The position numbers and the translations under genes were made by a program. 64,000 nt of DNA from Ctena decussata (Eukaryota; Mollusca; Bivalvia; Lucinida; Lucinidae), in the NCBI GenBank assembly GCA_963989385.1, contig OZ022502.1:10059001-10123000 (forward strand). The letters are read 5' to 3'. Below the pieces are notes generated by a model, which ran no database searches, had not been told where the DNA came from, and saw only the letters and a program-made list of their open reading frames with translations. Positions within the stretch are counted from its first letter, which is position 1. The number at the start of each line of letters is the position of its first letter. Below are positions 23,301 through 63,681 of the stretch, piece by piece.

Positions 23301-26300
23301 ACTGCTAAAAAGAAGTAATATCTCAAACAGCCGCCATATACATAAATATATAGCATATGATACATTAAACTTTCAAAATGTGTGAATAACTTCTAAACTA
23401 CAAGCCCTACAAACCTAATTTTGAGCTCTCTAGTAAGTGAATTTGGACAAAGAATCCAAATCTGGAGGAAAAAAAATTATTTTTTTTTTTGGTGGGGTGG
23501 GGTGGGGAGGGTGGGGGGTGGAATTTGGAGGGGTCGGAGAGAGTCAGAAACACTGATAATATATCACAGCATGTTCATCAATATTCTAAAAGGTATAAGG
23601 TTATTAAAATTGTGGAGCAGGCCAGGGTTATACAGATATGGAGCAGAGACTCAAACAGCAGCTCAAAATACCAAAGGGAAATAACTCACAAAGTATGAAT
23701 GCAAAAGTTGTCATTCATGTATGAGACAAATCATCATGACCTGTTCTTCATATCTGTGAAGTATCATGAAAATATTTCAAAAGGTATTCAAGCTAAGGAG
23801 CGGACACCTAAAGTCATCAAAGGGAAATAACTCTAAAAGTAAGAAAGCAAGAGTTGTCATTCCTGTTCGTGACATATCGTCATGACCTGTTCTACATATT
23901 TATGAAAATTTAAAGAGTAACTACACTTCAAGAACTGACTGAATCAGATCCCAAACCCTATCCCCAACATCAAAGGGAAAGATTGACAAAGACATCCCAA
24001 CAAACAATAAATTACAAGTGATAAGCCGAGTCAGCAGCTCTTTCCCAAATAGATGGCAACTCAGCTATCTTTATTGAACTAAATAATTTAGACCAACAGA
24101 CGGGTTACAACGGACTAAGCAAATTATATGAAAAACATAATATGAAGTATCATATAAAAATTTCAAAAGGTATTCAAGTTATAGAGCAGACACGAAATCA
24201 TACCTAAAACCATCAAGGGGAAATAACTGAAAAAGTAAGTAAGCAAGAGTTGTCATTCTTGTTCGCAACATATCATCATGACCTGTTCTACATATCTGTC
24301 AAGTATCATGAAAATATTCCAAAAGGTATATGAGTTATAGAGCAGACACGAAACCACACCTATAATGATTAAGGGGAAATAATTCAAAAAGTAAGAAAGC
24401 AAAAGTTGTCATTCTTGTTTGCGACACATCGTCATGACCTGTTCTACATATCTGTGAAGTATCATGAAAATATTCTAAAAGGTATTCAAGTTATGGAGCG
24501 GACACGAAATCACACCTAAAACAATCAAGGGGAAATAACTCAAAAAGTAAGAAAGCAAGAGTTGTTACTCTTGTTCACGACACATTGTCATGGCCTGTTC
24601 TACATATCTGTGAAGTATCATGAAATTATTCTAAAGGGTATTCAAGTTATAGAGCGGACACGAATCTGCCAAAAAATCATACCTCAAACCATCAAGGGGA
24701 AATAACTCAAAAAGTAAGAAAGCAAGGGTTGTCATTCTTGTTCGCGACACATCGTCATGACCTGTTCTACATATCTGTGAAGTATCATGAAAATATTCCA
24801 AAGGGTATTCAAGTTACAGAGCGGACACGAATCTGCCAAAAAAACTCACCAAAGAGGAAATAACTCAAAAAGTACAATAGCAAGAGTTACCATTCTTGTA
24901 CGCGACACATCGTCATGACCTGTTCTACATAACTGTGAAGTATCATGAAAATATTCCAAAGGGTATTCAAGATATAGAGTGGACAAGGAAATGTTTACGG
25001 ACGGATGGATGGATGGCAGACTGACGGACGGACAGACGGACGGACGCCAGGCTCATCCCTATATCCTTTTGGTCGGGGGATAAAAATAACAATGATCTGT
25101 TCACCAAAATGAGCGAAAGAACGTGTGTGAGAGTGTGTAAATAAACTGACTAAGAAAAGTGAATGAGTGGGCCATTTGTTCATCTGATTGACCAAGTATG
25201 GGCCTGGCCCTGAGGTTATAAAACTTGAGTACATTCTCAAACTCAAAATATAGCACACTGATTGGCTGCTTCTGAGAACATGCTCAGAAGCAGCCAATCA
25301 GTGTGCTTTATTTTGAGTTTGAGATTAAACTCAAGTTTTATAACCTCGGACCCTTATTCAATCCAAAGAATGAGTGGGGACAGTGCTATAGTGGTAAATT
25401 TTTGGTTGGTTGGTTGATTTGATGCTTAACGTCCACGGTAAACAACTAAGGTCATGTCGGGACGGTCAGTTAACCTAACCACACTATTCCTGGGCAGGCT
25501 TAGACCTCCTAAGCGGTTAACCAGTGCTAAGTGCACATACTTACGCCAGTAACTGACAACTGCCCTTCTTGAATCAGCGGAAGGAGAAACGAAAGTATGT
25601 GGCCAGACCGGGATTCGAACCCAGGACCTCTGACTTACGAGCCAGGTGCCCTACCGATTGCGCTACCCGGCCCGGCTATAGTGGTAAAAATGGGTATGAT
25701 ATGTTTCCCAGTGTGTGAGTGCCCATGCTAGTAAGTACGTCAATATGCCCTGTTAGTCCACTAGAATGAGTATGGTGGTCTTTATGAGGGTCATAACATT
25801 TGACAACTGCCCTTCTTGAATCAGCGGAAGGAGAAACGAAAGTATGTGGCAAGACCGGGATTCGAACCCAGGACCTCTGACTTACGAGTCAGGTGCCCTA
25901 CCGATTGCGCTACCCGGCCCGGCTATAGTGGTAAAAATGGGTATGATATGTTTCCTAGTGTGTTAGTGCCCATGCTAGTAAGTACGTGAATATGCCCTGT
26001 TAGTCCACTAGAATGAGTATGGTGGTCTTTATGAGGGTCATAACATTTGATTTTACTCAGAAACAGTAAAGATGAACAAGTAAACTCGTTGAATGTATAT
26101 CCCCTGCTAAATGACCAACTTGTTTACAGGTTAGAAGTTTAATGAAATTTTGTTAACCAGTTACTTAGTTACGGCTAAACTTGTGGATTTTTAATTAATT
26201 CAAGGGCCTTAACTCATTCATTAGTGAAGCTATTCTAATATACATTTACCTTGCATGTGCATGATACACATTTATGTTCAGTTTCACTATAGTAATACAA

Positions 26301-40700: not shown

Positions 40701-43700
40701 AAATAGTGACACTCTCTGCAATTTTCAAATGGGGGTCAACTCCTAAAGGAAAGAATTCGCTCCTCTAGGAGCAAATTCTTTTCTTTAAGAATACACCCCC
40801 TTGTATTGTCTAGGAAAAAAGGAAGTCATGAAAGTTGTTTTCTTTTGTAGGGCTATTTAATTATGAAAAGCAGAGGTATTTATTACTTAGTCAAAAGCCC
40901 TCAACATTGGAAAATGGAGACAGGCTGGCTATAGAGATGGATCAGAATCTATTCGTTCTAAACATAAAATCTTTGCTTTGTTCTTGATAAGTATTTAATG
41001 GTAAATTGGATCAATTTTCTTATTTCTTCCTGAAACACATCTTGAGGCTCTTCATAACAACCATCTGGGCAGCTTGCATGAGGAGCCACAAGATATGTTT
41101 TCATTGATAGTTAACAGACATTCTCTTATACTTTTTATCAAATTCCTCCCTTTCACGGGGCTCTTTCTGAAGTTCTAGAAGCAATACAGTGAACAGCTAG
41201 GTTGCTGATCAGACTGTCTGATAATGCACCTATATCAGTAGAAAGTATAATAACTTGTAGATCACAGTTCAGGGTCTTCCCTCGGCTTTGTACTATAGGA
41301 GTCCTAGGGACTCTCGCCTTTGGCGCTTGAGAGTCCTAGTGCAAATTGTAAGAGTCCCATATAGAAACATAACTCTGTATAATGATTAAGAGAACTAATA
41401 AACAACTGAAATGAAAAAAAAAATCAAATCTAGATTCAAAGCAGTAGCACATGTAAGCTATTTGTTTTCTAAAACATCTGTTTATAAATCAAAATCAACT
41501 AAACTGTAATTTCCTTCTCAATTTTTGAGAGTCCTGTAGGACCCTCAAGATTATTTTTTGAGAGTCCCAGACATCATTTTGGGAGTCTGAGACTCTCAAT
41601 CTTGAGTCCGGGAAAACCCTGACAGTTATATCTAAACATGGGGATGTGAGATATTAATTGAGCATTTAGAAGAAAAAATATGATTATCTTTAAACTCTTT
41701 GTTGAATTCCTTGGTATTATGTGTAGTTTGTAAGCACTGTCTTTTAATGAGAAAATTTGAGGTGAATGGGGACAATTTCAGGGGATGCAACTCTGTCATC
41801 TTCATTTTTGCCTCTCTTCTAAATGGGGGATCAACTCTTAAAGGATAAAATTTGCTTCCTACTGAGCAAATTCTTTCCTTCAAGAATAGATCCCATTAGG
41901 GGACTACTCCCTCATGCAGGAAAGCAAACAGAAAGTCAGAAAAGCTTTTTCCAAGTGTAAAAATGGTGGAAAACATGGCGGTGTACACATACACCTTCAT
42001 GATTACTGCAAAATATCTATACTAGGGTCAAGTCAGGTAAATTCGGACAGCAGGTAAATCCAGACAGTGACATTATTTCCTTTATATGTCAGTTGTTTTG
42101 AATTAAAACAAAATTAACTGGGCAAACAGTGAAAACCCTGATGAAACAGCTCATTATTAGCCATCTCATCTGGATTTTCACTATTTGCAATGGTATGTCC
42201 GAATTTACCCGCTGTCCAAAGTTACCCAATATGACCATACTGAAAAGTAAGTACCTGAATGCTGGACTGACACTCCCCGACCAAAACTGTTTTCATTGTT
42301 TTCACAAACTTGCCTAAAAAAACAAACAAAGATGTCACAGTTCCAGAAAAGGTTGGGTTTGATGATAAGTTAGGAGCAAGGAATCTTCTTTCTCCATAAA
42401 AACACTTCTCATGACCCTTTAATAGAAAAGCCTAGTAAAATGTTTTGTACATGGTTAGCTCCTGAGAATCAACTCAAGAAAACATCTTTTGGGGCTGCTA
42501 ACTACAGTATTTAATAAGTGATGAGTCAGTATTTTTTCCCCGAAAAAAAAAAAGAAAAAAAATTTCTAGACTGTATTACCATTAAAATTCTAAGAACCAG
42601 GACAGATACAGCTAAAAAACAGTGTAGGCTCAGATCAGACTGCTCCTGAAGGAGCTGTCTCATCAGGGCCTACACTGTTTGCATTTCCAGCTACATCTTT
42701 TAGATGCATCATGTCACTGTATTACCAAACTGTACCAGTTATTGGACAATAATTTTAACTATTTTAGTCGCCCCAATTTTTCAAATTTTTGGAGTATAAG
42801 TCCTCATTATCTGGACACTGATCCAGATGCTTAATTGACAAGAACTCAAGTGGGTTTTGGGCAACAAATGAATGATTATAACTTTTTAAATGAAGTAAAT
42901 ATTTCACTGTCTGTAGCTTATGAACTGTGGATTCTGTAATTAGTTTTGTGGTGTCTGGCAGACTGACAGAATTGTGGTGTCTGGCAGACTGACAAAATTG
43001 TGGTGTCTGGCAGACTGACAAAATTGTGGTGTCTGGCAGACTGATAGAACTGTGGTGTCTGGCAGACTGACAGAATTGTGGTGTCTGGAAGACTGATAGA
43101 ATTGTGGTGTCTGGCAGACTGACAGAATTGTAGTGTCTGGCAGACTGACAGATTTGTGGTGTCTGGCAGACTGATAGAATTGTGGTGTCTGTGGTGTCTG
43201 GCAGACTGACAGATTTGTGGTGTCTGGCAGACTGACAGATTTGTGGTGTCTGGCAGACTGACAGAATTGTAGTGTCTGGCATACTGACAGATTTGTGGTG
43301 TCTGGCAGACTGACAGATTTGTGGTGTCTGGCAGACTGACAGAATTGTAGTGTCTGGCAGACTGACAGATTTGTGGTGTCTGGCAGACTGACAGATTTGT
43401 GGTGTCTGGCAGACTGACAGATTTGTAGTGTCTGGCAGACTGACAGATTTGTGGTGTCTGGCAGACTGACAGAAACGACATTTCCTTGAAAGGAAAATCT
43501 TCTGTTGCAACACTATCATACAGGTGGCCAAGTAACAAAAAACCAATGGAAGGCTGTGTCTTACTATGCACTGTCACAAAACAACTAAACGAGAAAACTC
43601 AACCCCAGCTGACAGAAACATAAAGCCTTTGTCTTGCTTCTGCCAGTCATAGGCAAGACAAAAACTGGGGTCGAGTCTGGTAACTTCGGACAGTGGGTAA

Positions 43701-53139: not shown

Positions 53140-53319
53140 CTGTAAAAAGGAACAATAATCAGAGCTCCAGACTAGATGAGTCAAGAGAGAGTTTTCTATA
53201 ACTGTGGGATAATTGCTCTATTTCTCATGGAAAGCATATGAGCAGCGACAACACAAAACCAATAAAAGGCCATCGGCCAAGTGTCACCCGACGTTTGAAA
53301 TGTGTCACAATCTTCAGCC
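53140..53319. other. MMS22L intron, left flank of the retroelement
   Basis: Contains a decayed family-D end (AGAGCTCCAGACTAGATGAG, about 53159) and a family-B-like scrap near 53250. The last four bases, AGCC (53316-53319), are the left copy of the retroelement's target duplication. Confidence 0.7.
53316..53319. other. Target-site duplication, left copy (AGCC)
   Basis: AGCC directly precedes the TG of the left LTR and recurs at 63678-63681. Four to six bases are usual for Ty3/gypsy integrases. Confidence 0.9.
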
Positions 53320-53850
53320 TGTACCACAGCAGATGAAGAACACTTAATAAATTATAATAATTTATTAATCAACGGTTTAGCTTCTAACAAGCCTCAGAGA
53401 ACAACTGCCGGGACAGAGGAAACATACAGGCTTTTATACTCATGACCACTTATGATTATGGACGTCATATTCTGGTCCTCGTGCTTCCTGTCACGTTGTG
53501 GTCAATTAGAAAATCATGACTTTGGCCTAAGAGGGTCACTAATTGAGGTGTGCCTTTATTTTTAGCCATGATCAAGGAAGTTCATGTCACAGTTATATAA
53601 AACAAATGCGGTATTTCTCAATTAGTGTCCACTCTGGCACAATTTTATAAGATATAGCCAGAACATGTTTCTCGCCTGTCCACGACTCTGCTTATATTCA
53701 TTTACAGTTTCAATTTCAAAATAACAGAATATTCACAATTTCAGAATTCTCAGATTATTCACAAAATATCATAAAATATTCCCAAAAGATCATATCATAA
53801 AGTATGCATAATACATACTTTAAACATGCAGAAAGCACGTCTGTGTTACA
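53320..53850 (-). repeat. 3' LTR (left), 531 bp
   Basis: It begins TGTACC and ends GTTACA on the plus strand, so it has TG...CA borders. It is identical by eye to 63147-63677. For the element's minus-strand RNA this copy supplies the poly(A) signal AATAAA at 53361-53366. Confidence 0.97.
53361..53366 (-). terminator. Poly(A) signal in the 3' LTR
   Basis: AATAAA on the minus strand (plus TTTATT), about 65 nt downstream of the TATA box of the same LTR. Cleavage would be expected within the next 10-30 nt, close to the end of the LTR. Confidence 0.65.
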
Positions 53851-53862
53851 TACCCTCCCTGC
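53851..53862 (-). other. Polypurine tract
   Basis: On the minus strand GCAGGGAGGGTA stands directly before the 3' LTR. This is the purine-rich primer for plus-strand DNA synthesis. Confidence 0.8.
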
Positions 53863-54089
53863 GTATGAAAAAATTACGATAACAATTGATTAGCGTAATT
53901 TTTCAACTGCTCATGGAATTAAAATAAACACAGTCAGTGCTTTCTGATTTCAAGTCACATTCGCCTCACATATTTACAAGTTCATCAAATTGTTTCAAGT
54001 CAACATTGTCTCTTATTAGAACAAGTCATCTTAGCTAATATTTTAAGCTGCTTCATTTCCTCTACGACGTTGTTCCAGAAAGACGTTAC

Positions 54090-54260
54090 AGTGGTACCAG
54101 ATAACATGTATAATATGCTACCCCTCAATGAGGTGCCTTATGTCATGGCCCCTCTTGTTGTACCAGATAACATAGGTAATATTATCCATCTGTTGTACCA
54201 GGTAACATAGGTAATGCTACCCATCTGTTGTACCAGGTAACATAGGTAATGTTACCCCTC
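54090..54260 (-). repeat. 35-bp tandem repeats in the env 3' untranslated region
   Basis: Three adjacent 35-bp units (54156-54190, 54191-54225, 54226-54260) begin TGTTGTACCAGGTAACATAG; the first has a few changes. A fourth, decayed unit is at 54090-54124. They lie between the env stop and the polypurine tract, present in every predicted transcript. Confidence 0.85.
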
Positions 54261-54558
54261 GTTGATCGTATAGTGGTAAGTTGTATAGTCAGTATATAAG
54301 CTTGCTGTGAAACATCGAGGTTCGATTTGAACTCTCTTCTTCTAAGTTGGAGTTAACAACAAGAAATATCACAAGTGTCCCTGTCTTATCAAAGTTTCTA
54401 ACATTTGTAAATTTCCTCTGCTATCAACAGAACTTTCTATCATAAATGTTTTGCATAATGTTATGATAAACTTAATAAACAGCACAGTGTCACGTAGATA
54501 CAAGCACAGTTGGCCGAAATCCAATTTGTGATAAACTCACTTTGTCTACTGAACACTT

Positions 54559-56664
54559 TTACTGTTCTTGATTAGAAGTTATATTTGTCGGTTGTAACGG
54601 CAGGAATCGTATTACTTGTCCAACGTCGTCATGTTTACCCAACCGTGGCGAAGCCTCCTTGCTGCCCAGTAAAGCACTAGTCTGTTGTAACATCTCCTGA
54701 GATTCTCCGTTGTAGCTTTTACATGTCTCTCTTTCCTCCCGACTAGACCAGGTATCGGGACCCTTGTCGGGGTCCCTCGTGTACAGACAGCTGGTTTGCG
54801 CTCCCCGACTACCACCATTTCCCCTGGCAGTTGGCAACCAACCGGCTATTGTACCTCCCCATTTGCAATATACCAAAATGCTCAGTACTACTAAAGTTAC
54901 AATTCCAAGTATAATCAAACAGTATCCCCACCAAGGAAAAGGTTTATTTGTTGTTGGTCGAATGTGACCTACTTGATTCAATCCTTCAATTAATTGTTCC
55001 ACAGGAATTTCCTTAAGGTGTCTAAGTTTCTGAGGTAGCCGAACAACCCCTCTTAAATTGGGCAATTTAAATTTAAATTGATCCCAGATTTTTATATTCG
55101 AGAAGTTGTATTTTTGCAGCATGCTAAGAGCATCATTATGTATTTTATGAGAAGACCCATGTTCATAAGTTCCAGTCAGAGTGACCCGATCTGAGGTCGC
55201 AACACAGCCTTTTCTAACTCTCACAAAACCATAAGGTACAGAAACTTCAATTTTCTGACGCACAGAATCCTCACAAGCTAAATTTAGCGTCAAGTGTGTC
55301 CTAGTAATTACTATATATGTGTCATCACTTAAGTACTGGAATCGGGGCAGGTCATTGCCAAGTGTCACTAAGGTCGAACATAGGCGTTGCACTTTAATCT
55401 TATCATCGTTAAAGATAGCGACTATACACATGTTTGCTAAATTTGTTTGATGTATTGGTCTACGAAGTGTGCACAGCCTTGAAAACCCAATTCTGCATGT
55501 TTCTCTATCTTTTGGATCTAAAAGCATGAACTGTGTTCTTTCTGGATTAATGGCAATGTACTTAGCCTCGAGCTCATAATATGTTAACATTTCATTCTTT
55601 GTAATATTATTCGTATTATAGATTGTGCTGATAGGTAAAGGTAAGTTATATACTTTATACAAATCCATTTGTTTGGTATAATCTATTAGGGGAATAGGTA
55701 CTATGATCAATATCCTGTTGTCTTCCATTATCGTCTGACAAATTAAATTTTTATATAAGGACCAGAGCTCTACATCCGGATCCACCGGTAATCCAAATGA
55801 CTTTGGTAACTGAGTTTCTATTTCTTTTAAGACTGATTGAAATTCTAAAGGATTTATAATATTTGGCGTCAGCCGTTGCATAGATAGGGCACTAATTTGC
55901 ATTTTCAAGTTAAGGAAATAGTAAAATGACTTTTGAATAGCCGTTCTTATCTCTTCGATTACCATATTTACCTTAGCGAACAAATGTACAAATTGTTGTA
56001 ATTCAAACACTTCCTTACCAAGCTGTTCAACAATGTGATTCAGTTCTTTTCGAATATCGCCTAAAGAGTCTATTATCTCATTAATACTTTGTCTATTTTG
56101 TCTGACTGCAGATTGCGTAACATTTAAAACTGACAAACTCTTTTCTAGCGTGTGGGAGATTATTTGCTGATTATTTGCAAGTATGTTAATGTTAGCCCTT
56201 ATGTTATTTAGGTCTGAACTACTAATACTATTTCCAAAGAGAAATCCAAGAACTCCAGAGAGGATCTCTAGGATCGCTCTTTTAGGCCTTTTCTTTAACA
56301 TTTTCAAGTTTAGAAAGCTCCGTTTTACGTCATTATTTATTCCTTCTAAAGTACTGACCTCATCTTGTAAAGATCGGAAAACAGATAAATACCCTGCCAT
56401 ATCAGTATGACTATAATGTCTAGAAATCCAATCCGTCACGTTTTTTGCATTTTTTATATCAGCCGTTAATCTAGTAATGAAACTGTCATAAACATCGATA
56501 TCTAGGACAAGTGTCAAAATCCATCTGGAACTGGAAAGGGACATTTCGCCATCTTTATAGAACAAAACATTTTCATGAATAATGGAATGATCTACTGTGG
56601 AACTTGATTTAACACCCATTAAAACCCATATCCCCCCTAGGAAATACAATAGACCAGGAGCCAT
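54559..56664 (-). CDS. env: env: envelope glycoprotein, F-protein-like
   Basis: 701 residues. A hydrophobic signal peptide covers about residues 4-17. A furin-type site RPKR ends at residue 129 and is followed by a Gly/Leu/Phe-rich, fusion-peptide-like segment (AILEILSGVLGFLFG, 130-144). A heptad-rich region (about 150-215), N-glycosylation sequons (for example NVT at 75 and 181), a large ectodomain, a membrane anchor at about 578-602 and a cytoplasmic tail of about 100 residues complete it. Cleavage site, fusion segment and coiled coil in this order are the plan of baculovirus F and gypsy/errantivirus Env proteins, so I place it there by architecture. The ATG lies 6 nt after a splice acceptor and would be the first AUG of the spliced RNA. 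The frame is uninterrupted. It is the candidate for cell-to-cell spread, but infectivity cannot be read from sequence. Confidence 0.9.
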   Translation of the reverse strand: MAPGLLYFLGGIWVLMGVKSSSTVDHSIIHENVLFYKDGEMSLSSSRWILTLVLDIDVYDSFITRLTADIKNAKNVTDWISRHYSHTDMAGYLSVFRSLQDEVSTLEGINNDVKRSFLNLKMLKKRPKRAILEILSGVLGFLFGNSISSSDLNNIRANINILANNQQIISHTLEKSLSVLNVTQSAVRQNRQSINEIIDSLGDIRKELNHIVEQLGKEVFELQQFVHLFAKVNMVIEEIRTAIQKSFYYFLNLKMQISALSMQRLTPNIINPLEFQSVLKEIETQLPKSFGLPVDPDVELWSLYKNLICQTIMEDNRILIIVPIPLIDYTKQMDLYKVYNLPLPISTIYNTNNITKNEMLTYYELEAKYIAINPERTQFMLLDPKDRETCRIGFSRLCTLRRPIHQTNLANMCIVAIFNDDKIKVQRLCSTLVTLGNDLPRFQYLSDDTYIVITRTHLTLNLACEDSVRQKIEVSVPYGFVRVRKGCVATSDRVTLTGTYEHGSSHKIHNDALSMLQKYNFSNIKIWDQFKFKLPNLRGVVRLPQKLRHLKEIPVEQLIEGLNQVGHIRPTTNKPFPWWGYCLIILGIVTLVVLSILVYCKWGGTIAGWLPTARGNGGSRGAQTSCLYTRDPDKGPDTWSSREERETCKSYNGESQEMLQQTSALLGSKEASPRLGKHDDVGQVIRFLPLQPTNITSNQEQ

Positions 56665-56669
56665 TCGAC

Positions 56670-56695
56670 CTGAAACCCAAAGAAAAATAAACGTT
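56670..56695 (-). other. Splice acceptor before env
   Basis: On the minus strand a pyrimidine-rich tract ends TTTCTTTGGGTTTCAG, with its AG at 56671-56670. The env ATG follows after 5 nt. The likely donor is at 63101. Confidence 0.72.
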
Positions 56696-56720
56696 TCTAT
56701 TTCAGTTTTCCAACAGGTGC

Positions 56721-56733
56721 GGTCACATTGACC
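56721..56733. promoter_or_regulatory. 13-bp palindrome GGTCAATGTGACC in the ORF-X2/env spacer
   Basis: Two inverted GGTCA half-sites 3 bp apart. The ORF-X1/ORF-X2 spacer has the near-identical GGTCATTGTGACC (57256-57268). It is either a relic of the duplication that made the two genes or a shared RNA or protein site; function unknown. Confidence 0.5.
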
Positions 56734-56748
56734 TCATTTACTACAATA

Positions 56749-57063
56749 TTATTGTGCTTGGTTTTGAGAAAAGATTTTAAACAGCTCGCCATAATATTCC
56801 TGGTGGAACAGGATCATGCGGTTCAGTCGAGCTGCCATTTCAAGTAAATCACTAGCTCCTTGCATGTTAGTGGTGCATAATCTCATTGACCTTTCGAAGA
56901 GGTCAGGATTTTCACTGAGTAAGATAGTATAGCCAAATTCTGATGTAAGAAGTTGACATTTAATTTTACCGTAATTTTCCTTTAATTTGGTCACAAGTTC
57001 TTCCGAGACGTGCAAATTCCTGAGTTTAACAATTACATCAAAGACTGCCTTTCTTTCTAGCAT
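56749..57063 (-). CDS. ORF-X2: second accessory gene, paralogue of ORF-X1, 5' end interrupted
   Basis: An open frame of 104 residues starts at ATG 57063 (MLERKAVFDVIVKLRNLHVS). It aligns with the last 97 residues of ORF-X1: both have M(M/L)ER-AV-DV, a Y--I---L---E(Y/F)G block and a C-terminal FH--YY--L block. Over the first 50 aligned residues I count 17 identities without gaps. Upstream in the same frame, ATG 57186 starts the part that corresponds to the N-terminus of ORF-X1, but TAA at 57120-57118 closes it after 22 codons. The gene is therefore either a broken copy or uses the internal ATG. I recognise no family. It is rich in Leu, Glu and Lys and predicted mostly helical, with no signal peptide. 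Confidence 0.7.
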   Translation of the reverse strand: MLERKAVFDVIVKLRNLHVSEELVTKLKENYGKIKCQLLTSEFGYTILLSENPDLFERSMRLCTTNMQGASDLLEMAARLNRMILFHQEYYGELFKIFSQNQAQ

Positions 57064-57117
57064 TTCATAATAAACAAGAAGTGGCTCATCAAATTTCCCT
57101 GAGAAATCCCTTAGTCG

Positions 57118-57186
57118 TTAGATGTCCTCAAGAACATCTCCTGGAAGATCAGACTGATCCAGGATGGCCGAATCTTGTTCCCACAT
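57118..57186 (-). pseudogene. Interrupted 5' part of ORF-X2
   Basis: ATG (57186-57184) to in-frame TAA (57120-57118), 22 codons, in the frame of ORF-X2. After the TAA the frame stays open to ATG 57063 and beyond, and the aligned region resembles residues 1-60 of ORF-X1. An overlapping short frame starts at an earlier ATG (57191) and ends near 57112. The single stop in an element with identical LTRs is a young lesion or a deliberate regulatory stop. Confidence 0.65.
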
Positions 57187-57199
57187 TGCATAGAATTAT

Positions 57200-57225
57200 C
57201 TGAAGTTAAGAAAAATAATAAGAGC
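57200..57225 (-). other. Splice acceptor before ORF-X2
   Basis: A minus-strand tract CTCTTATTATTTTTCTTAAC followed by TTCAG, with AG at 57201-57200. The first ATG follows 9 nt later and the ORF-X2 frame ATG 14 nt later. Confidence 0.68.
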
Positions 57226-57255
57226 CACTCACTTAAGTTGTTATATATATATGTT

Positions 57256-57268
57256 GGTCACAATGACC
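57256..57268. promoter_or_regulatory. 13-bp palindrome GGTCATTGTGACC in the ORF-X1/ORF-X2 spacer
   Basis: The counterpart of 56721-56733, differing at one central base. Half-sites and spacing equal the oestrogen-response-element pattern, which may be chance. Confidence 0.5.
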
Positions 57269-57294
57269 CCAAGTTAGTCACTCCCCTTTAGATA

Positions 57295-57774
57295 TTATAT
57301 TTCAAGGAGTGACGTTAGAAGCTTCAGTTCAAAATGCAGCGCCAGCTGCTCATAATACAAAATATGGAACCTGATCAGGTTCGGCAACCTATTAAAAATA
57401 CAAATCTGGTTGCATGGCTCTCTGCGGCCATACACCATTGTTTGTATACATTGCATATACAAACTACTTAGTAATGCAAGTTCCCAAGCCCCATATTCAT
57501 GCTGAAAAAGATAGTTTTCGATCTCTTGATAGTGATCTTCTATCTCTTTGACGCTATCAGCCGATAGCCCTAATGTCCTGACGACCGACAAGACGTCATA
57601 AACCGCTGCCCTCTCCATCATTTTGAAAAGCGAATCTGGCTCCCGGCCTTGCGGGTCAAACTCCCCCCAGTGCATGAAGTCATTTAGATCCTTCTTGAGG
57701 ATCTGGGGTAAGTTACAAGTTTCCACCAGTTCTACGTCCTGGTCTAACCCGGTCAGGATTCTTTCTTGGGACAT
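57295..57774 (-). CDS. ORF-X1: accessory gene between pol and env, family unknown
   Basis: 159 residues from ATG 57774 (MSQERILTGLDQDVELVETC). The open frame extends further 5' to an ATG at 57858, but those codons are the T-rich acceptor tract read as hydrophobic residues, so I chose 57774, the first AUG after the splice acceptor at 57809. There is no signal peptide, zinc finger or catalytic signature that I recognise. It is acidic and mostly helical, with Cys residues clustered near 45 from the C-terminus. Residues 63-159 are paralogous to ORF-X2. The position between pol and env, its own acceptor and the duplicated copy recall the accessory genes of complex retroviruses (vif, vpr/vpx, tat), but no homology to these is visible. 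Role unknown. Confidence 0.78.
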   Translation of the reverse strand: MSQERILTGLDQDVELVETCNLPQILKKDLNDFMHWGEFDPQGREPDSLFKMMERAAVYDVLSVVRTLGLSADSVKEIEDHYQEIENYLFQHEYGAWELALLSSLYMQCIQTMVYGRREPCNQICIFNRLPNLIRFHILYYEQLALHFELKLLTSLLEI

Positions 57775-57808
57775 GTTTTTTTTTCTGAATATATGTAGTG
57801 ATATAGTA

Positions 57809-57835
57809 CTGGAAAAAAAACAATAAAACAAAAGA
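57809..57835 (-). other. Splice acceptor before ORF-X1
   Basis: Minus-strand TTTGTTTTATTGTTTTTTTT followed by CCAG, AG at 57810-57809. This is the strongest pyrimidine tract of the three acceptors. The first ATG, 34 nt on, is that of ORF-X1. Confidence 0.75.
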
Positions 57836-57936
57836 TTTATAAGATATCTCATTACCAAAACTCATTAATTTATATACATTTATCAGGATTATTATTATGT
57901 CACTACCGACAATCATTATATAACCACACTGACAGC

Positions 57937-60900
57937 TTATAACGCATCAACAATACTTGTCAACAAATTTTTAATCTTGTTTGCTTTTGGCGTTGCCTTA
58001 CGCCGCCGATAACTCTTTTGTCTGAACTTACAGACATGATCAATATCCATATTGGAAAGGTCAGCTTCCTCATAGCCGACTGCTGAATTATCTGAATTAT
58101 AGCCGCTTGGGCTCATTATTATGGTTGACTCAGAAGCTGACTCATTTTCAGAGCCTGAACTTTGGCGTTCTTCCTTAATTTCTGATTCTGAATTCTCTGA
58201 TTTTACCCCATTCTCTAAATCTGAGAATTTATTTTCTTGTTTTAATCTAGCTTCTCTATCCCTTAACCGTCGGGCAATCTCGGCTAATGGAATATTTTCT
58301 TCGTCCTCTGAATCAGATCTTTCTTTGCGATACTTATTAATCAGCCTCTCTCGGGGAGGTTCTGAATCAGAGTCCGAAGTAGAAGTACTGCTATCACCTT
58401 CCGGTGGGACTACTAGGTTAGCTTTACGAGTTTTCCTTTGACCCTGTTCCTTCGGAATTTCCCATTTATCAATGTTTGCTAATCTCATGTTATCTGTACT
58501 ACTTTTGATAATTTTTCCTGTTAATTGATCCCTTAGCTCCCATGTTTTGTCACCTGTACGTTTCATAATTCTATAATACGGTTGCCATTTTGCATCGAGT
58601 TTATTTCCTCTTTTGTGCTTTTTTATATAGACAGGCTGACCGACTTCAAATTCTACTTCTTTTCTTTTACTGTCTGCATATTTTGCCTGTCTCCTATGAG
58701 CTTGTTTGCGCCGACGGTGCATTAATACAAATGCCTTATGCGTTTGTTCCAGACCTTTTTCAATAATATCTTCACCGTAGTAGCGACGACGGGGCTGCAG
58801 TAAATTCGAAATTGGAATTATGGGATCCCTTTGGAACAAATAAAAGAAAGGAGACTGTTTAGTGGATTCATTCTCACTGAACCTTATAGCCGCCAAAGAC
58901 TGATTTAGATGTAAATCCCAGGTTTGCATATTGTCTTGAACTTTTTTCGATAAAACATCCATCAAACTGCGATGTACTCTCTCTACTCTGTTTTCCCAAG
59001 GACTATACACGTTTGTCCGTCTATGTGAGATATTAAGCTTCTTAAATAAATTTTCAAGAGTGCTATTACAAAATTCTTTACCGTTATCAGTAATGACCTG
59101 AACAGGACATCCATACCGTGGGAAAATTTCTTCAAGGAAAGTGTGCGCAATTGCGTCTGCCCTTTTATCAGGTAAAGGCCATGCTTCTACGTAACCTGAA
59201 TACCAGTCAATGGCTGTTAGAATGTAAACATTGGATGATAAGGTTTTTGGCAGCGGTCCCACTATATCTAATGCGATCTTTGCAAAAGGGAAAGGGGGCG
59301 TATCTACTTCTTTTAAGGGTGATTTTATTTTCTGCATATTGCGCGACTGACAAGCTACACATTTTGATACATACTCATAAACTTGTTTATACAGGTTTGG
59401 CCAAAAATAATGCTTTCTTATTGTATCAAAAGTTTTGTCAAATCCTAAATGGATGATATTGTGTGTCTCTGCCATTACTTTCTCAGTTAGGTGACTAGGG
59501 ACATACAGGCGTACCACGGGGTCTTCATCCACTTTGGAGATGTAGTACAGTACATGGTCTAAAATAATGTACTTTTTTAATTTATTGTTTGTTTGTCCTG
59601 ATTCTATTTGAGACTTAATAGTGTAAATTTCGGGGTCTTTTGCTTGTTCACTTACCATGTCCAAACCTAATGAGTCCGGTTTTTCTAGATGGTCATTTTC
59701 CTTGAACTTACAAGAAACAAACTGGTTGAGATCTACTGCATTTGAGTCTATTACCCCGATCTCATATGACCTATCGGACACATCTGGTACGACTTCTTGC
59801 TCAGACTGATTTTCTTGGCATTTTCCCTCTTCATTTAGATTAGGGTGTCTCGAAAGCATATCTGCTATCGTATTGCACGAGCCACGGATGTAATTTATGG
59901 TTGCATTATACCCCTGGATGGTGAGAGCCCACATTTGCACCCGCCTGTTCATCATTGGACTTTCAAGGAGGTAACGAAGAGGCTGATGATCACAAAAGAT
60001 CTCAAATTTTGCATTGTGTAAGTATGTGTGTAATTTCTGAAGGGCATAGTAAATCGCATAACATTCCCGTTCTATTGTAGAATAGCGACATTGTGTTGGG
60101 CTCAGCTTATGGGACAAGAAGTAAATGGGCTTCTCTACTTTTCTACCCGTGCTATTTCCCTCTTCATCAATCTCTTCTTGCTCCTGAGACAGTACAGCTC
60201 CAATAGTATCAGCACTTGAATCTGTGTGCAACCGATAGGGCAAAGAACTATCAGGAAAAGCCAACAAGGGTATGACCGTAAGACTTTCTTTTAGATATTC
60301 AAAGGCGGTCTGACATTCCTGATCCCACTTAAACCTGGCATGTTTCCTTGTTAAGCCTATTAGAGGCTCAGCAATTTTTGAAAAATTTGGAATATACCGC
60401 CTATACCAAGACACTGACCCAATAAAACCTCTAACTTCCCTGACATTCGTGGGAGGGGGCAAAGACCGTATAGCCTTGACTTTGTTTTCATCCGGTTTGA
60501 CACCCTGTTTACTTATAATGAACCCCAAATGTACTGTTTCTTTCTGAAGAAAATTACATTTTTTTAACTTTAGTTTTAAATTATGTTGCCTGAATCTGTC
60601 AAATACTTGTTGTATGTGGCCTAAATGTTCAGTTAAACTGCTTGACCATATTAACACGTCATCTAAGTAGCTTGTTGCAAAATCATCTAAGCCATTTAAA
60701 ACTTCATTCATAAGCTCTGTAAATATGGAGGGCGCATTACATAATCCAAACGGCATCGCAGTAAAGGAGAAAAGTCCCTTGTGACATGTGAACGCAGTCT
60801 TATCTTGACTGTCCTCATCAACTGTTACTTGCCAGTAACCTGATCGTAAATCAAGTGACGTAAAGTATTTTGCGCCAGACAGTCTATTTATTATGTCATC

Positions 60901-62073
60901 AATTAATGGTAGATTTATAGCTATTGGCCTTGTTATTTTATTTAGTTTCCTATAATCTATACAAAATCGGCTACTTCCATCTTTCTTTTCCACTATGATT
61001 ACCGGAAATGCCCAACTTGACCTTGACCTTTGAATTATATTTGCTTCAAGCATCTCATCTACTGCTTTGTCAATTATCTTTCTAGTATTCAAAGGGGTGC
61101 GATATGGCCTCAATTTAATTGGAGGATGGTCCCCTGTTTCTATTTTCATAGTGACTGTATCTGTTTGCGTTAAGTCAGAATCTTTTTTTGCTAAAATGTC
61201 CGAATTGTTTTCTAAAAGATTTTGGATTAACTCTTTATGTTCTTCGGGACAATTTATTTCTTTAATTAATTCCTCACTCGTGTAGGATGCTCTCCCTTTC
61301 TTTGTTACAGATGCTATTTCTTTAATATTTTCTTCATTTAGTAATTCTACTTTTCCTATGACACATCCTTTCCTTAATTTATAAGTTTTGCCTGTATTGT
61401 TGGTAATATGTACCGGAAAACATCTTGACGCATTTAATTTAATTACTGAGTTTGACACTTCTAAACCTGGCTCATTATTAATGAAACTTTGGTCAATGGC
61501 TGACATTTGATAAGTGTTTGACTCCGGTAAATGTGGATTATTTTTAACCATGCCCTTACAAATGTAAGCTGTATGCGGTTTAAGTACTACTTTTGTTTTT
61601 ATTCTTACTATTGACGCAATGTGAACGTCTTCCACTAAAGGGACATAAGTGTCTTTTACCCTAAGGCAGCCTAAATCATAATAAACTCTTACACCATTTT
61701 TTATCAGCCAATCCTGACCTAGGATTAAATTCCGATTCATGTTTGAAACTACGTAGAATTTATGTTCTAATTTAACACCATTTAATATTAATTCTAAATT
61801 TACCTGCCCTTGCACAACTAATTGTTCACCGTTAACTGATTGCAAATTGACCGAAATTCTCTGTAAATGCGGCTTAAATCTTAATGACTGATAAACTTTC
61901 ATATTAATTAAACTTACTTCAGCTCCTGAGTCCACCAAAGCTCGTAATTTCCTTTTTTCTATTTGTACACTACAAGAATTTGAATTTTTCCCAGCTAAAG
62001 AAATTTTGAATGTTGATGCGTTATTTCTCTCCCTATCTGCTGCCGGATGATAGAGAGAGTCTCCTAGTTTAAA
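57937..62073 (-). CDS. pol: pol: protease, reverse transcriptase, RNase H, integrase
   Basis: The frame is open from the frameshift site (62073) to 57937, 1378 codons, with no plausible ATG at its start, so it is made as Gag-Pol. Residues below count from the TTG at 61938. Protease: DSG at 3-5 and LILGQDWL at 71-78. Reverse transcriptase: FCIDYRKLNKI about 325-335, LDLRSGYWQ 362-370, MPFGLCNAPS 395-404, YLDD 424-427. RNase H: D573, E623 or E625, D650, D693. Integrase: zinc-binding H826, H830, C860, C863; catalytic D891, D951, E986. The D951 to E986 gap is 34 residues, one fewer than the usual 35, because the common NGQVER stretch is WENRVER. A GPY/F-like module (AKWQPYYRI, about 1115-1124) follows, then an acidic Ser-rich tail of about 150 residues and a basic end. 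There is no chromodomain. Confidence 0.95.
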   Translation of the reverse strand, partial: FKLGDSLYHPAADRERNNASTFKISLAGKNSNSCSVQIEKRKLRALVDSGAEVSLINMKVYQSLRFKPHLQRISVNLQSVNGEQLVVQGQVNLELILNGVKLEHKFYVVSNMNRNLILGQDWLIKNGVRVYYDLGCLRVKDTYVPLVEDVHIASIVRIKTKVVLKPHTAYICKGMVKNNPHLPESNTYQMSAIDQSFINNEPGLEVSNSVIKLNASRCFPVHITNNTGKTYKLRKGCVIGKVELLNEENIKEIASVTKKGRASYTSEELIKEINCPEEHKELIQNLLENNSDILAKKDSDLTQTDTVTMKIETGDHPPIKLRPYRTPLNTRKIIDKAVDEMLEANIIQRSRSSWAFPVIIVEKKDGSSRFCIDYRKLNKITRPIAINLPLIDDIINRLSGAKYFTSLDLRSGYWQVTVDEDSQDKTAFTCHKGLFSFTAMPFGLCNAPSIFTELMNEVLNGLDDFATSYLDDVLIWSSSLTEHLGHIQQVFDRFRQHNLKLKLKKCNFLQKETVHLGFIISKQGVKPDENKVKAIRSLPPPTNVREVRGFIGSVSWYRRYIPNFSKIAEPLIGLTRKHARFKWDQECQTAFEYLKESLTVIPLLAFPDSSLPYRLHTDSSADTIGAVLSQEQEEIDEEGNSTGRKVEKPIYFLSHKLSPTQCRYSTIERECYAIYYALQKLHTYLHNAKFEIFCDHQPLRYLLESPMMNRRVQMWALTIQGYNATINYIRGSCNTIADMLSRHPNLNEEGKCQENQSEQEVVPDVSDRSYEIGVIDSNAVDLNQFVSCKFKENDHLEKPDSLGLDMVSEQAKDPEIYTIKSQIESGQTNNKLKKYIILDHVLYYISKVDEDPVVRLYVPSHLTEKVMAETHNIIHLGFDKTFDTIRKHYFWPNLYKQVYEYVSKCVACQSRNMQKIKSPLKEVDTPPFPFAKIALDIVGPLPKTLSSNVYILTAIDWYSGYVEAWPLPDKRADAIAHTFLEEIFPRYGCPVQVITDNGKEFCNSTLENLFKKLNISHRRTNVYSPWENRVERVHRSLMDVLSKKVQDNMQTWDLHLNQSLAAIRFSENESTKQSPFFYLFQRDPIIPISNLLQPRRRYYGEDIIEKGLEQTHKAFVLMHRRRKQAHRRQAKYADSKRKEVEFEVGQPVYIKKHKRGNKLDAKWQPYYRIMKRTGDKTWELRDQLTGKIIKSSTDNMRLANIDKWEIPKEQGQRKTRKANLVVPPEGDSSTSTSDSDSEPPRERLINKYRKERSDSEDEENIPLAEIARRLRDREARLKQENKFSDLENGVKSENSESEIKEERQSSGSENESASESTIIMSPSGYNSDNSAVGYEEADLSNMDIDHVCKFRQKSYRRRKATPKANKIKNLLTSIVDAL
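62027..62073 (-). promoter_or_regulatory. -1 ribosomal frameshift signal between gag and pol
   Basis: On the minus strand TTTAAAC (62073-62067) sits in gag frame as T TTA AAC, directly before the gag stop TAG (62066-62064). Seven bases later comes an 11-bp stem: CTCTCTCTATC (62059-62049) with GATAGGGAGAG (62037-62027), one G-U pair, 11-nt loop. Heptamer type, phase, spacing and stem all meet the standard rule X XXY YYZ. The -1 frame continues without a stop into the protease. No competing gag-pol link is needed. Confidence 0.9.
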
Positions 62074-63068
62074 GTATTTTGCGGCTCTTGACTAGTTCCG
62101 CTTTTAACCTCTTGATTTTGATTCCTCTTAGGACATGATCTTTGTAAATGAAATGGTGAATTACACAGAAAACACCGCTTTTGGCCTGAATTGCTCTGAT
62201 GACCTAGCTCATTCCGCCTAGGAATATTGTGTGGATACCTATTTAAACCTTGACCCTGACTATACTGATTATCTTGTCGAGAGATAGCATTGATCTGCCT
62301 GTTCCGGTCAAATGTCTGATTTCTAGCAGGGCCAGACCTTTGCCACCGCTTCGGTCGTATATGACCTATATCCATAGGTTCATGACCAGGTCGCTCAAAC
62401 TGTTCGCGGCCAGTTGTGCGCAGGCTGAATCGCTTCCTTAAATTTACTTCATAGATTGCACTATTTACTGCCTCGTCTAATGTAGGTGGATTTACCCGAA
62501 GAAGTTTCATTTTGATTTGATCCGAAACCAACCCATCAATAAAATAACCCACTAACTGTGTTGCCATAGCCTGTTGAGCGGCATTATCCAAGCCTGTTGA
62601 CGCTTGTTCAGCTAGATCAATCAATCTTTCTGCATAAGACTGCACTGACTCAGTCTCTTTTTGATGAATGCGTCTCAATAAACAAGAAGCGTGGGAAGGG
62701 TCTATGATAGTAGAAAATCTTCTTGATAATTCAATCTTAATCATATCCCAAGTTGCATTTGGAAATTGCGCCATATATCTTGCCAAAAAATTACTGACAG
62801 CGTCTCTACTGCCATTGTAAGCCACAAGTTTGATATTGTTTGCCCCAACATCAGTTAATTTACAGAATTTTTCCACTTGCTTAACCCAAGGGTGAAAATC
62901 TTTACTATTTTTTCCATCAAATGGAGTAATAAATTGGCCAATACTAGCATTACCAAAAGAATTTGATAGAGCCCCAATCTGAGCTGTTAACTGACTGAAA
63001 GCTGCAGCAATTTCCTGCTGAAACTGAGCATTTTGGTCTGGAGCGGCCTGTCGGTTTTCCTCTGCCAT
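62064..63068 (-). CDS. gag: gag: capsid and nucleocapsid polyprotein
   Basis: 334 residues from ATG 63068 (MAEENRQAAPDQNAQFQQEI) in a good context (AACATGG). The frame is open 34 codons further upstream, but those codons include the splice donor and reach into the LTR, and there is no upstream ATG. Residues about 45-215 have the helical pattern of a retrotransposon capsid (WVKQVEKFCKLT, then DLAEQAS and VGYFIDGL). A basic, Gln/Arg/Asn-rich linker follows. One CCHC zinc knuckle, CX2CX4HX4C (C299, C302, H307, C312), binds RNA. Gag would assemble particles around genomic RNA; Gag-Pol arises by frameshifting in its last codons. Confidence 0.94.
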   Translation of the reverse strand: MAEENRQAAPDQNAQFQQEIAAAFSQLTAQIGALSNSFGNASIGQFITPFDGKNSKDFHPWVKQVEKFCKLTDVGANNIKLVAYNGSRDAVSNFLARYMAQFPNATWDMIKIELSRRFSTIIDPSHASCLLRRIHQKETESVQSYAERLIDLAEQASTGLDNAAQQAMATQLVGYFIDGLVSDQIKMKLLRVNPPTLDEAVNSAIYEVNLRKRFSLRTTGREQFERPGHEPMDIGHIRPKRWQRSGPARNQTFDRNRQINAISRQDNQYSQGQGLNRYPHNIPRRNELGHQSNSGQKRCFLCNSPFHLQRSCPKRNQNQEVKSGTSQEPQNTLN

Positions 63069-63095
63069 GTTAGAAACAGTAATAATCGCAAAGAC

Positions 63096-63103
63096 ACTTA
63101 CCG
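63096..63103 (-). other. Splice donor in the leader
   Basis: Minus-strand GACCG followed by GTAAGTG, with intron base one at 63101. It lies between the primer site and the gag ATG, where retroviral leaders carry their major donor. It is the natural partner for the acceptors at 57809, 57200 and 56670. Confidence 0.72.
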
Positions 63104-63117
63104 GTCTGTTTTCTCCA

Positions 63118-63135
63118 ATCCTGGTCACGGCACCA
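63118..63135 (-). other. Primer-binding site, tRNA-His type
   Basis: Minus-strand TGGTGCCGTGACCAGGAT is complementary to an 18-nt tRNA 3' end ending CACGGCACCA. The acceptor strand it implies starts GCCGTGA, which is that of animal tRNA-His as I remember it. It starts 11 nt after the LTR end, farther than the 0-3 nt seen in most elements. Confidence 0.75.
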
Positions 63136-63146
63136 GTTACGTAAGA

Positions 63147-63677
63147 TGTACCACAGCAGATGAAGAACACTTAATAAATTATAATAATTTATTAATCAAC
63201 GGTTTAGCTTCTAACAAGCCTCAGAGAACAACTGCCGGGACAGAGGAAACATACAGGCTTTTATACTCATGACCACTTATGATTATGGACGTCATATTCT
63301 GGTCCTCGTGCTTCCTGTCACGTTGTGGTCAATTAGAAAATCATGACTTTGGCCTAAGAGGGTCACTAATTGAGGTGTGCCTTTATTTTTAGCCATGATC
63401 AAGGAAGTTCATGTCACAGTTATATAAAACAAATGCGGTATTTCTCAATTAGTGTCCACTCTGGCACAATTTTATAAGATATAGCCAGAACATGTTTCTC
63501 GCCTGTCCACGACTCTGCTTATATTCATTTACAGTTTCAATTTCAAAATAACAGAATATTCACAATTTCAGAATTCTCAGATTATTCACAAAATATCATA
63601 AAATATTCCCAAAAGATCATATCATAAAGTATGCATAATACATACTTTAAACATGCAGAAAGCACGTCTGTGTTACA
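63147..63677 (-). repeat. 5' LTR (right), 531 bp, promoter
   Basis: Identical to the left LTR. On the minus strand U3 comes first. A TATAAAAG box at 63258-63265 is followed about 65 nt downstream by AATAAA (63188-63193), so R should start near 63230, with a short R and U5. No ATG occurs between the predicted start and gag. Confidence 0.95.
63258..63265 (-). promoter_or_regulatory. TATA box of the 5' LTR
   Basis: TATAAAAG on the minus strand (plus strand CTTTTATA), inside GAGTATAAAAGCC. Its position in the LTR suits a start site near 63230. The same box is present in the other LTR at 53431-53438. Confidence 0.75.
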
Positions 63678-63681
63678 AGCC
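63678..63681. other. Target-site duplication, right copy (AGCC)
   Basis: Follows the CA that ends the right LTR and equals 53316-53319. Confidence 0.9.

What the first reader, a model, noticed from the sequence alone, without database searches (positions are those of the whole stretch)
53320..63677. Intact, recently inserted retrovirus-like element with env and two accessory genes
The sequence shows identical 531-bp LTRs, a clean 4-bp duplication, a primer site, polypurine tract, gag, pol and env all open. Insect gypsy/errantiviruses show that env-bearing Ty3/gypsy elements can be infectious. The gene set here is larger: gag, pol, X1, X2, env. I infer that this may be a mollusc endogenous retrovirus with a complex genome. 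I know of no described element with this gene order.
Basis: partly seen in the sequence, partly recalled or inferred. Interest (0 to 1): 0.88.

Follow-up and report, generated by a model that had tools for sequence, protein, structure and literature searches.

The report
Clam retrovirus-like element with accessory genes
A recently inserted virus-like jumping element, probably in a bivalve genome, carries an envelope gene and a duplicated pair of small extra genes, so an invertebrate element may have evolved a complex-retrovirus-like gene plan; one of the extra genes is broken in this copy.

Summary
The element is real and lies on the minus strand. Its 531-bp LTRs are identical and flanked by a 4-bp duplication. 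Gag, pol and env are open. It is not fully intact: X2 has an in-frame stop at codon 23, while 7 of 13 X2 relatives run open there.

Pol is PR-RT-RNaseH-integrase, nearest to Ty3 among solved structures. Env is a Baculo_F-type fusion protein. So it is an env-bearing Ty3/gypsy element of errantivirus kind. Such elements are reported across animal phyla (cited in PMC13172572; primary paper not held), so the bare idea is known.

The gene plan is the new part. X1 and X2 are paralogues without a convincing Pfam match. X1, X2 and env each follow a strong predicted 3' splice site: ranks 1, 2, 3 of 146, or 1, 2, 4 of 154 by another score. Pol probably comes from -1 frameshifting at U UUA AAC plus an 11-bp hairpin.

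Copy number and clade are untested: the genome search failed in 20 of 20 tries. Verdict: new variant of a known kind.

The parts
63147..63677 (-). 5' LTR, 531 bp, TGTA...TACA
   Evidence: identical to the other LTR, 0 of 531 mismatches
53320..53850 (-). 3' LTR, 531 bp
63678..63681 (.). target site duplication, copy 1 (GGCT in element orientation)
53316..53319 (.). target site duplication, copy 2
63115..63135 (-). primer binding site, tRNA-His type, 11 nt inside the 5' LTR
   Evidence: 18 of 21 bases match the 3' end of human tRNA-His(GTG), 12 contiguous; the host tRNA was not examined
63095..63101 (-). candidate splice donor GTAAGTG, the only one of the element's 17 GTRAG sites that lies between the LTR and the gag ATG
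   Evidence: no ATG between LTR end and donor
62064..63068 (-). gag, 334 aa; Retrotrans_gag domain, one CCHC knuckle
62067..62073 (-). slippery heptamer U UUA AAC directly before the gag stop
   Evidence: one of 5 in-frame XXXYYYZ heptamers in gag
62027..62059 (-). frameshift hairpin: 11-bp stem, 11-nt loop, 7-nt spacer
   Evidence: the 111-nt stretch 61960-62070 has z-score -2.97, 1 of 200 shuffles folds as well
57937..62091 (-). pol frame (-1 to gag), PR-RT-RNaseH-IN plus a long charged tail
57809..57828 (-). predicted 3' splice site for X1
   Evidence: rank 1 of 146 and 1 of 154
57295..57774 (-). X1, 159 aa, accessory gene
   Evidence: 8 relatives at 52-67% identity; homologous to X2
57200..57219 (-). 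predicted 3' splice site for X2
   Evidence: rank 2
57118..57186 (-). X2, first 22 codons, ending in an in-frame stop
   Evidence: 7 of 13 relatives run open here
56749..57063 (-). X2, downstream open part, 104 aa from an internal ATG
56670..56689 (-). predicted 3' splice site, 5 nt before the env ATG
   Evidence: rank 3 of 146 (tied on pyrimidine count with four others, ahead by T count), 4 of 154
54559..56664 (-). env, 701 aa, Baculo_F-type fusion protein: RPKR site at 126, one C-terminal membrane segment
54156..54260 (-). three tandem 35-nt units in the 3' untranslated region, each able to fold into a 9-bp hairpin
53853..53860 (-). short purine tract AGGGAGGG, 2 nt before the 3' LTR

Best explanation
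It is a recently integrated, env-carrying Ty3/gypsy (Metaviridae) provirus of errantivirus kind with a compact complex-retrovirus-like expression plan. Shown by sequence: LTRs, target duplication, gag, pol with its domains, Baculo_F-type env, the paralogous X1/X2 pair, an interrupted X2. Inferred from sequence: one full-length RNA starting in the LTR makes Gag, and by -1 frameshifting at U UUA AAC plus hairpin makes Gag-Pol; the leader donor at 63101 joins to three alternative acceptors to give separate mRNAs for X1, X2 and env; reverse transcription is primed by tRNA-His; Env is cut at RPKR and fuses membranes so that particles can pass between cells (somatic to germ line, as described for insect errantiviruses). 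Inferred by analogy only: X1 and X2, small paralogues between pol and env (X1 modelled as all-helical, X2 model unreliable), are accessory proteins working on the host cell, most likely against a host defence or as regulators of viral RNA use, comparable in position, size and duplication to lentiviral Vpr/Vpx but not related to them by any test here. This copy has lost full-length X2.
For: LTRs and duplication. Domains: RVT_1 1e-34, RNaseH, integrase, gag, Baculo_F 4.2e-17. Pol's best solved relative is Ty3, 1.1e-93, ahead of an 'Enzymatic polyprotein' (caulimovirus type, recalled) 6e-55 and 'Pr125Pol'-type chains (foamy virus, recalled) about 1e-38. Integrase D...D-34-E and HHCC. Env: two PDB 'fusion protein' sequences at 9.4e-13 and 5.4e-12; 12 relatives (where only the 7995 candidates sharing most words were scored); cleavage motif and membrane segment in 9 of 9 scanned. 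X1: 8 relatives; X2: 13. X1/X2 homology: BLASTP 4e-9, hhalign 94.6%, 38.9 bits against a best of 21.6 in 500 shuffles. Acceptors. Frameshift site. X1 and X2 relatives share the same longest-contig length in three cases, consistent with linkage elsewhere.
Against: No RNA data: splicing and frameshifting are predictions. Sites scoring at least as high as the element's third-ranked acceptor occur about 7 times per 10 kb per strand in the rest of the window (77 of 1498), so only their positions speak. X2 is broken here, and 6 of 13 X2 relatives lack the full N-terminus, so X2 may be dispensable. X1 and X2 have no convincing family; their function is a guess. None of the 12 env hits shares a longest-contig length with an X1 or X2 hit, so linkage of env to X1/X2 in relatives is not shown. 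Only 6 of 13 env proteins pass E 0.001 for Baculo_F. The 11-nt gap between LTR and primer site is unusual (recalled). Clade and copy number untested.
Confidence: 0.72

Rival explanations
1. An ordinary errantivirus whose X1/X2 region is only duplicated leftover sequence without function; only gag, pol and env matter.
For: X2 is interrupted in this copy; 6 of 13 X2 relatives lack the normal N-terminus; no convincing domain found.
Against: X1 keeps 158-159 aa length and 59-67% identity in 5 of 8 relatives (the other 3 are 126-143 aa, incomplete or altered); X1 and X2 each have their own well-placed predicted 3' splice site; X2 relatives are 70-82% identical. Neutral leftovers would hardly stay open at such divergence.
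Confidence: 0.17
2. The env was captured recently from a baculovirus-like or other DNA virus rather than being an old resident of this lineage.
For: Env matches the Baculo_F family.
Against: Env relatives form a graded series from 86% (a partial protein) to 26% identity, and a recent paper cites env genes of gypsy elements as highly ancient in animals (PMC13172572, passages).
Confidence: 0.07
3. The element is a decaying or dead insertion; identical LTRs come from assembly or gene conversion.
For: X2 interrupted; none of seven element pieces has a second copy in the rest of the window.
Against: 0 of 531 LTR differences, about 7.2 kb of gag, pol and env without internal stops, catalytic motifs present.
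Confidence: 0.1

Closest known systems
Insect errantiviruses / insect ERVs (gypsy, ZAM; Metaviridae) with env-F
   Same: Ty3/gypsy pol; env of baculovirus-F type with furin site, fusion-peptide region and membrane segment; env from a spliced subgenomic RNA (PMC12992720, passages).
   Different: Two extra paralogous genes between pol and env; tRNA-His-type primer site 11 nt from the LTR; a CCHC knuckle in Gag (recalled as absent from Drosophila gypsy Gag); TG...CA LTR ends. Clade not tested.
Metazoan env-carrying gypsy elements of Chary and Hayashi 2025 (eLife 108449)
   Same: Env-bearing Ty3/gypsy outside insects, said to be widespread across animal phyla (known here only through citing passages in PMC13172572 and PMC12992720).
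   Different: Unknown: the paper is not held, so whether it reports X1/X2-like genes could not be checked.
Lentiviral vpr/vpx pair (Retroviridae); gene facts recalled, role against the HUSH silencing complex seen in a passage of PMC11599104
   Same: Small paralogous accessory proteins encoded between pol and env, expressed from spliced RNAs.
   Different: No sequence hit; different virus family. Works-like only.
Bdelloid rotifer LTR elements with extra ORFs (TelKA, Juno, Vesta; PMC5408684, passages)
   Same: LTR elements that picked up genes downstream of pol, including a fusion-type env.
   Different: Their non-envelope extra genes are described as GDSL esterase/lipase or DEDDy exonuclease, not a small paralogue pair.

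Membership tests
Metaviridae (Ty3/gypsy) | Pol order PR-RT-RNaseH-IN | tested here: met
Metaviridae (Ty3/gypsy) | RT closest to Ty3/gypsy rather than retroviruses | tested here: met
   Ty3 1.1e-93; foamy-type chains 8e-39 or weaker, other retroviral chains 4e-28 or weaker; PDB sequences only, no tree
Metaviridae (Ty3/gypsy) | TG...CA LTR ends and 4-6 bp target duplication | tested here: met
Errantivirus (env-bearing gypsy) | Env of the baculovirus-F fusion type | tested here: met
Errantivirus (env-bearing gypsy) | Env made from a spliced subgenomic RNA | tested here: inconclusive
   predicted donor and acceptor only; no RNA data
Errantivirus (env-bearing gypsy) | RT-integrase tree position within the errantivirus clade | not tested
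   no named reference pol sequences were at hand
Errantivirus (env-bearing gypsy) | Infectivity | not testable with these tools
   needs bench work; referred
Complex retrovirus (Retroviridae) | RT closest to Retroviridae | tested here: not met
   closest to Ty3
Complex retrovirus (Retroviridae) | Tether domain with a second RNaseH | not tested
   one search reports one RT_RNaseH region; no test for a tether was made
Troyka | CG...CG LTR ends and 3-bp target duplication, no env | tested here: not met
   against PMC12440569 parts 1-2 of 5
Vpr/Vpx-like proteins (X1, X2) | Sequence or fold similarity to Vpr/Vpx | tested here: inconclusive
   no Vpr/Vpx sequence hit up to E 10; no significant fold match for X1; the X2 model is unusable

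The most novel reading that the evidence does not exclude
Complex-retrovirus organisation arose independently in invertebrate Ty3/gypsy elements: a tandemly duplicated accessory gene pair, each copy with its own 3' splice site, encodes counter-defence or regulatory proteins of an unknown family, and a repeated hairpin near the 3' LTR serves as an export or regulatory element for unspliced RNA.
Probability: 0.35. Interest if true: 0.8.

Novelty: new variant of a known kind. Interest (0 to 1): 0.58.

Why it matters
Accessory genes that fight host defences are known mainly from vertebrate retroviruses (recalled; Vif, Vpu, Vpr and Vpx in passages of PMC11599104). A conserved, duplicated, separately spliced pair in a bivalve-type Ty3/gypsy element would show that the same plan evolved outside Retroviridae. 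It would also give a handle on what antiviral or silencing defences bivalves use, in animals where a Ty3/gypsy element (Steamer) is already linked to transmissible neoplasia (PMC8905726, passages; PMC11046912, start of abstract in the listing).

Tried and rejected
The genome search on the window's own assembly with the LTR did not complete: 20 of 20 tries failed with the same message. Copy number, solo LTRs, empty sites, dN/dS and host tRNA-His are therefore untested.

The search for related loci: in genome contigs, env gave 34 and env alignment 593 pattern matches, 0 confirmed; in viral contigs 4 and 18, 0 confirmed, and pol had no pattern match. So no DNA of relatives and no direct check of gene order in them.

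Troyka was considered and rejected on its termini. A retrovirus proper was rejected on RT similarity. The fourth 35-nt repeat copy (54090-54124, 71%) folds in another register and is not counted as support. In one search the X2 start was mis-set by 2 nt; one search uses the right one, and the acceptor ranking does not depend on it.
Full report
Observation. The element spans 53320-63677 and is read on the minus strand. The two 531-bp LTRs are identical, end TGTA...TACA, and are flanked by GGCT on both sides. With 0 differences in 531, the 95% upper bound on divergence is 0.56%. Gag (334 aa from its ATG at 63068), pol (open 57937-62091, -1 to gag), X1 (159 aa) and env (701 aa) have no internal stops. 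Of 13 database relatives of X2, 7 carry the full N-terminus and run open through this place, 6 do not. X2 is thus open in some relatives and interrupted here. None of seven pieces of the element has a second copy in the rest of the window.

Gag and pol. Gag has a Retrotrans_gag domain (3.8e-6) and one CCHC knuckle. Pol holds aspartic protease, RT, RNaseH and integrase, with DSGA, YLDD and HHCC motifs and 34 residues between the second D and the E of the integrase. Against solved structures the best match is Ty3 (1.1e-93), then an 'Enzymatic polyprotein' (6e-55; caulimovirus type, recalled), 'Pr125Pol'-type chains (about 1e-38; foamy viruses, recalled) and other retroviral chains (4e-28 or weaker). 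This places it in Ty3/gypsy by similarity, not by a tree. The gag stop is preceded directly by U UUA AAC, and 7 nt further lies an 11-bp hairpin; the 111-nt stretch folds better than 199 of 200 shuffles, z -2.97. Gag has 5 in-frame heptamers of this type in all, so the evidence is the position and the hairpin, not the heptamer alone.

Env. Baculo_F matches at 4.2e-17 and two PDB 'fusion protein' sequences at 9.4e-13 and 5.4e-12. A basic cleavage motif and one C-terminal membrane segment are present in 9 of 9 env proteins scanned, the window's included (9 of the 13 held). Seven ectodomain cysteines are kept: three in 13 of 13, one in 12 of 13, three in 12 of 12 with residues there. Of 13 env proteins, 6 pass E 0.001 for Baculo_F. 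Relatives grade from 86% (P0031, partial) down to 26% identity; the search scored only the 7995 candidates sharing most words. Two of the 12 hits are deposited as proteins of Candidatus Thiodiazotropha, one named a methyl-accepting chemotaxis protein and one an envelope fusion protein. Since that bacterium lives in lucinid clams (recalled), these are probably clam DNA in symbiont assemblies. One env cluster has 70 member sequences, which may mean high copy number in a relative; this is inference.

X1 and X2. X1 has 8 relatives and X2 13; none has a precomputed Pfam domain, and scans of 9 and 13 members gave only weak hits, best E 0.0087. X1 and X2 are homologous along nearly their whole length: BLASTP 4e-9, hhalign probability 94.6 over 127 columns, and, for an open X2 relative against X1, 38.9 bits against a best of 21.6 among 500 shuffles. 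X1 is predicted all-helical (mean pLDDT 73.7) with no significant fold match in PDB or the viral library; the X2 model is too poor to use (47.4). X1 keeps two cysteines (C-x3-C) and two histidines near its C-terminus: first cysteine in 7 of 8 rows with a residue there, second in 8 of 8, each histidine in 7 of 7; this could bind zinc, an untested idea. Of the four X1/X2 proteins scanned for membrane segments, three have none; the window's long X1 frame has a weak one (1.65) at residue 6, in the stretch before the X1 ATG. X1 and X2 relatives share longest-contig lengths of 2362741, 2603439 and 1602467, consistent with linkage in other genomes; no env hit shares these, so linkage with env in relatives is not shown.

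Expression. Of 146 pyrimidine-tract 3' splice candidates in the element, the best three lie just before X1, X2 and env; the env site is tied with four others on pyrimidine count and leads by T count. With another scoring the three rank 1, 2 and 4 of 154, the third lying inside env. Sites at least as strong as that third one make up 77 of 1498 in the rest of the window, about 7 per 10 kb per strand, so strength alone means little and the positions carry the argument. Of 17 GTRAG donors in the element, one lies between the LTR and the gag ATG, at 63101, with no ATG between LTR end and donor; the LTR itself holds 14 ATGs, and the transcription start is unknown. I infer three subgenomic mRNAs. No RNA data were available.

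Cis elements. The primer site starts 11 nt inside the 5' LTR and matches the 3' end of human tRNA-His at 18 of 21 bases, 12 of them contiguous (tRNA sequence from a methods passage of PMC12217144). The gap implies unusual end trimming before integration, which I cannot explain. Between env and the 3' LTR three 35-nt units each fold into a 9-bp hairpin; the array has z -2.63, 2 of 200 shuffles folding as well. Read by eye from the alignment of the units, one pair changes on both sides (G-C to A-U) and two change to wobble pairs. Palindromic protein-binding sites in DNA would look much the same. A role in RNA export or stability is a guess. Rfam gives one sub-threshold hit in this region, E 1.2.

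Comparison with the literature. Env-bearing gypsy elements are said to be widespread in animals (passages in PMC13172572 and PMC12992720 citing Chary and Hayashi; primary paper not held). In Drosophila elements env is also made by splicing (PMC12992720, passages). Troyka is excluded by its termini and 3-bp duplications (PMC12440569 parts 1-2 of 5). Rotifer elements carry other extra ORFs (PMC5408684, passages). A mollusc LTR survey names 21 Gypsy clades, and a term find in it gave no 'env gene', 'envelope' or 'errantivir' (PMC6238403); a bivalve TE paper gave no hit for 'envelope', 'env', 'errantivirus' or 'endogenous retrovirus' (PMC10294476). 'errantivirus' with 'bivalve' occurs together in 0 papers of the library. 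My statement that I found no element with this gene order rests on the listings and the passages named here.

Verdict. A real, apparently young, env-bearing Ty3/gypsy provirus with a conserved duplicated accessory pair, damaged in X2. The kind is known; the gene plan is a new variant as far as I could see. Copy number and clade remain open because the genome search did not complete.

Noticed in passing
54156-54260: Three tandem 35-nt hairpin units in the element's 3' untranslated region with one compensatory pair change; a fourth, weaker copy at 54090-54124.
   Followed up: partly
63136-63146: 11-nt spacer between the 5' LTR end and the primer binding site, longer than usual (recalled); it implies unusual processing of the DNA end before integration.
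   Followed up: no
25554-26047: Two tandem 247-bp units, 98% identical, each with a tRNA-like sequence (Rfam tRNA); perhaps a SINE or a tRNA-gene duplication.
   Followed up: no
3589-50461: Many long tandem arrays with periods of about 145-446 bp in the flanking host DNA; by eye the 145- and 274-bp units at 11000-12076 and 18454-19647 look alike in opposite orientation.
   Followed up: no
42946-43474: 26-bp minisatellite, 20 copies, that leaves overlapping open frames; probably not a gene.
   Followed up: no
57937-58500: Pol ends in a long charged tail after the integrase; no chromodomain is among the 13 Pfam families listed for it.
   Followed up: no
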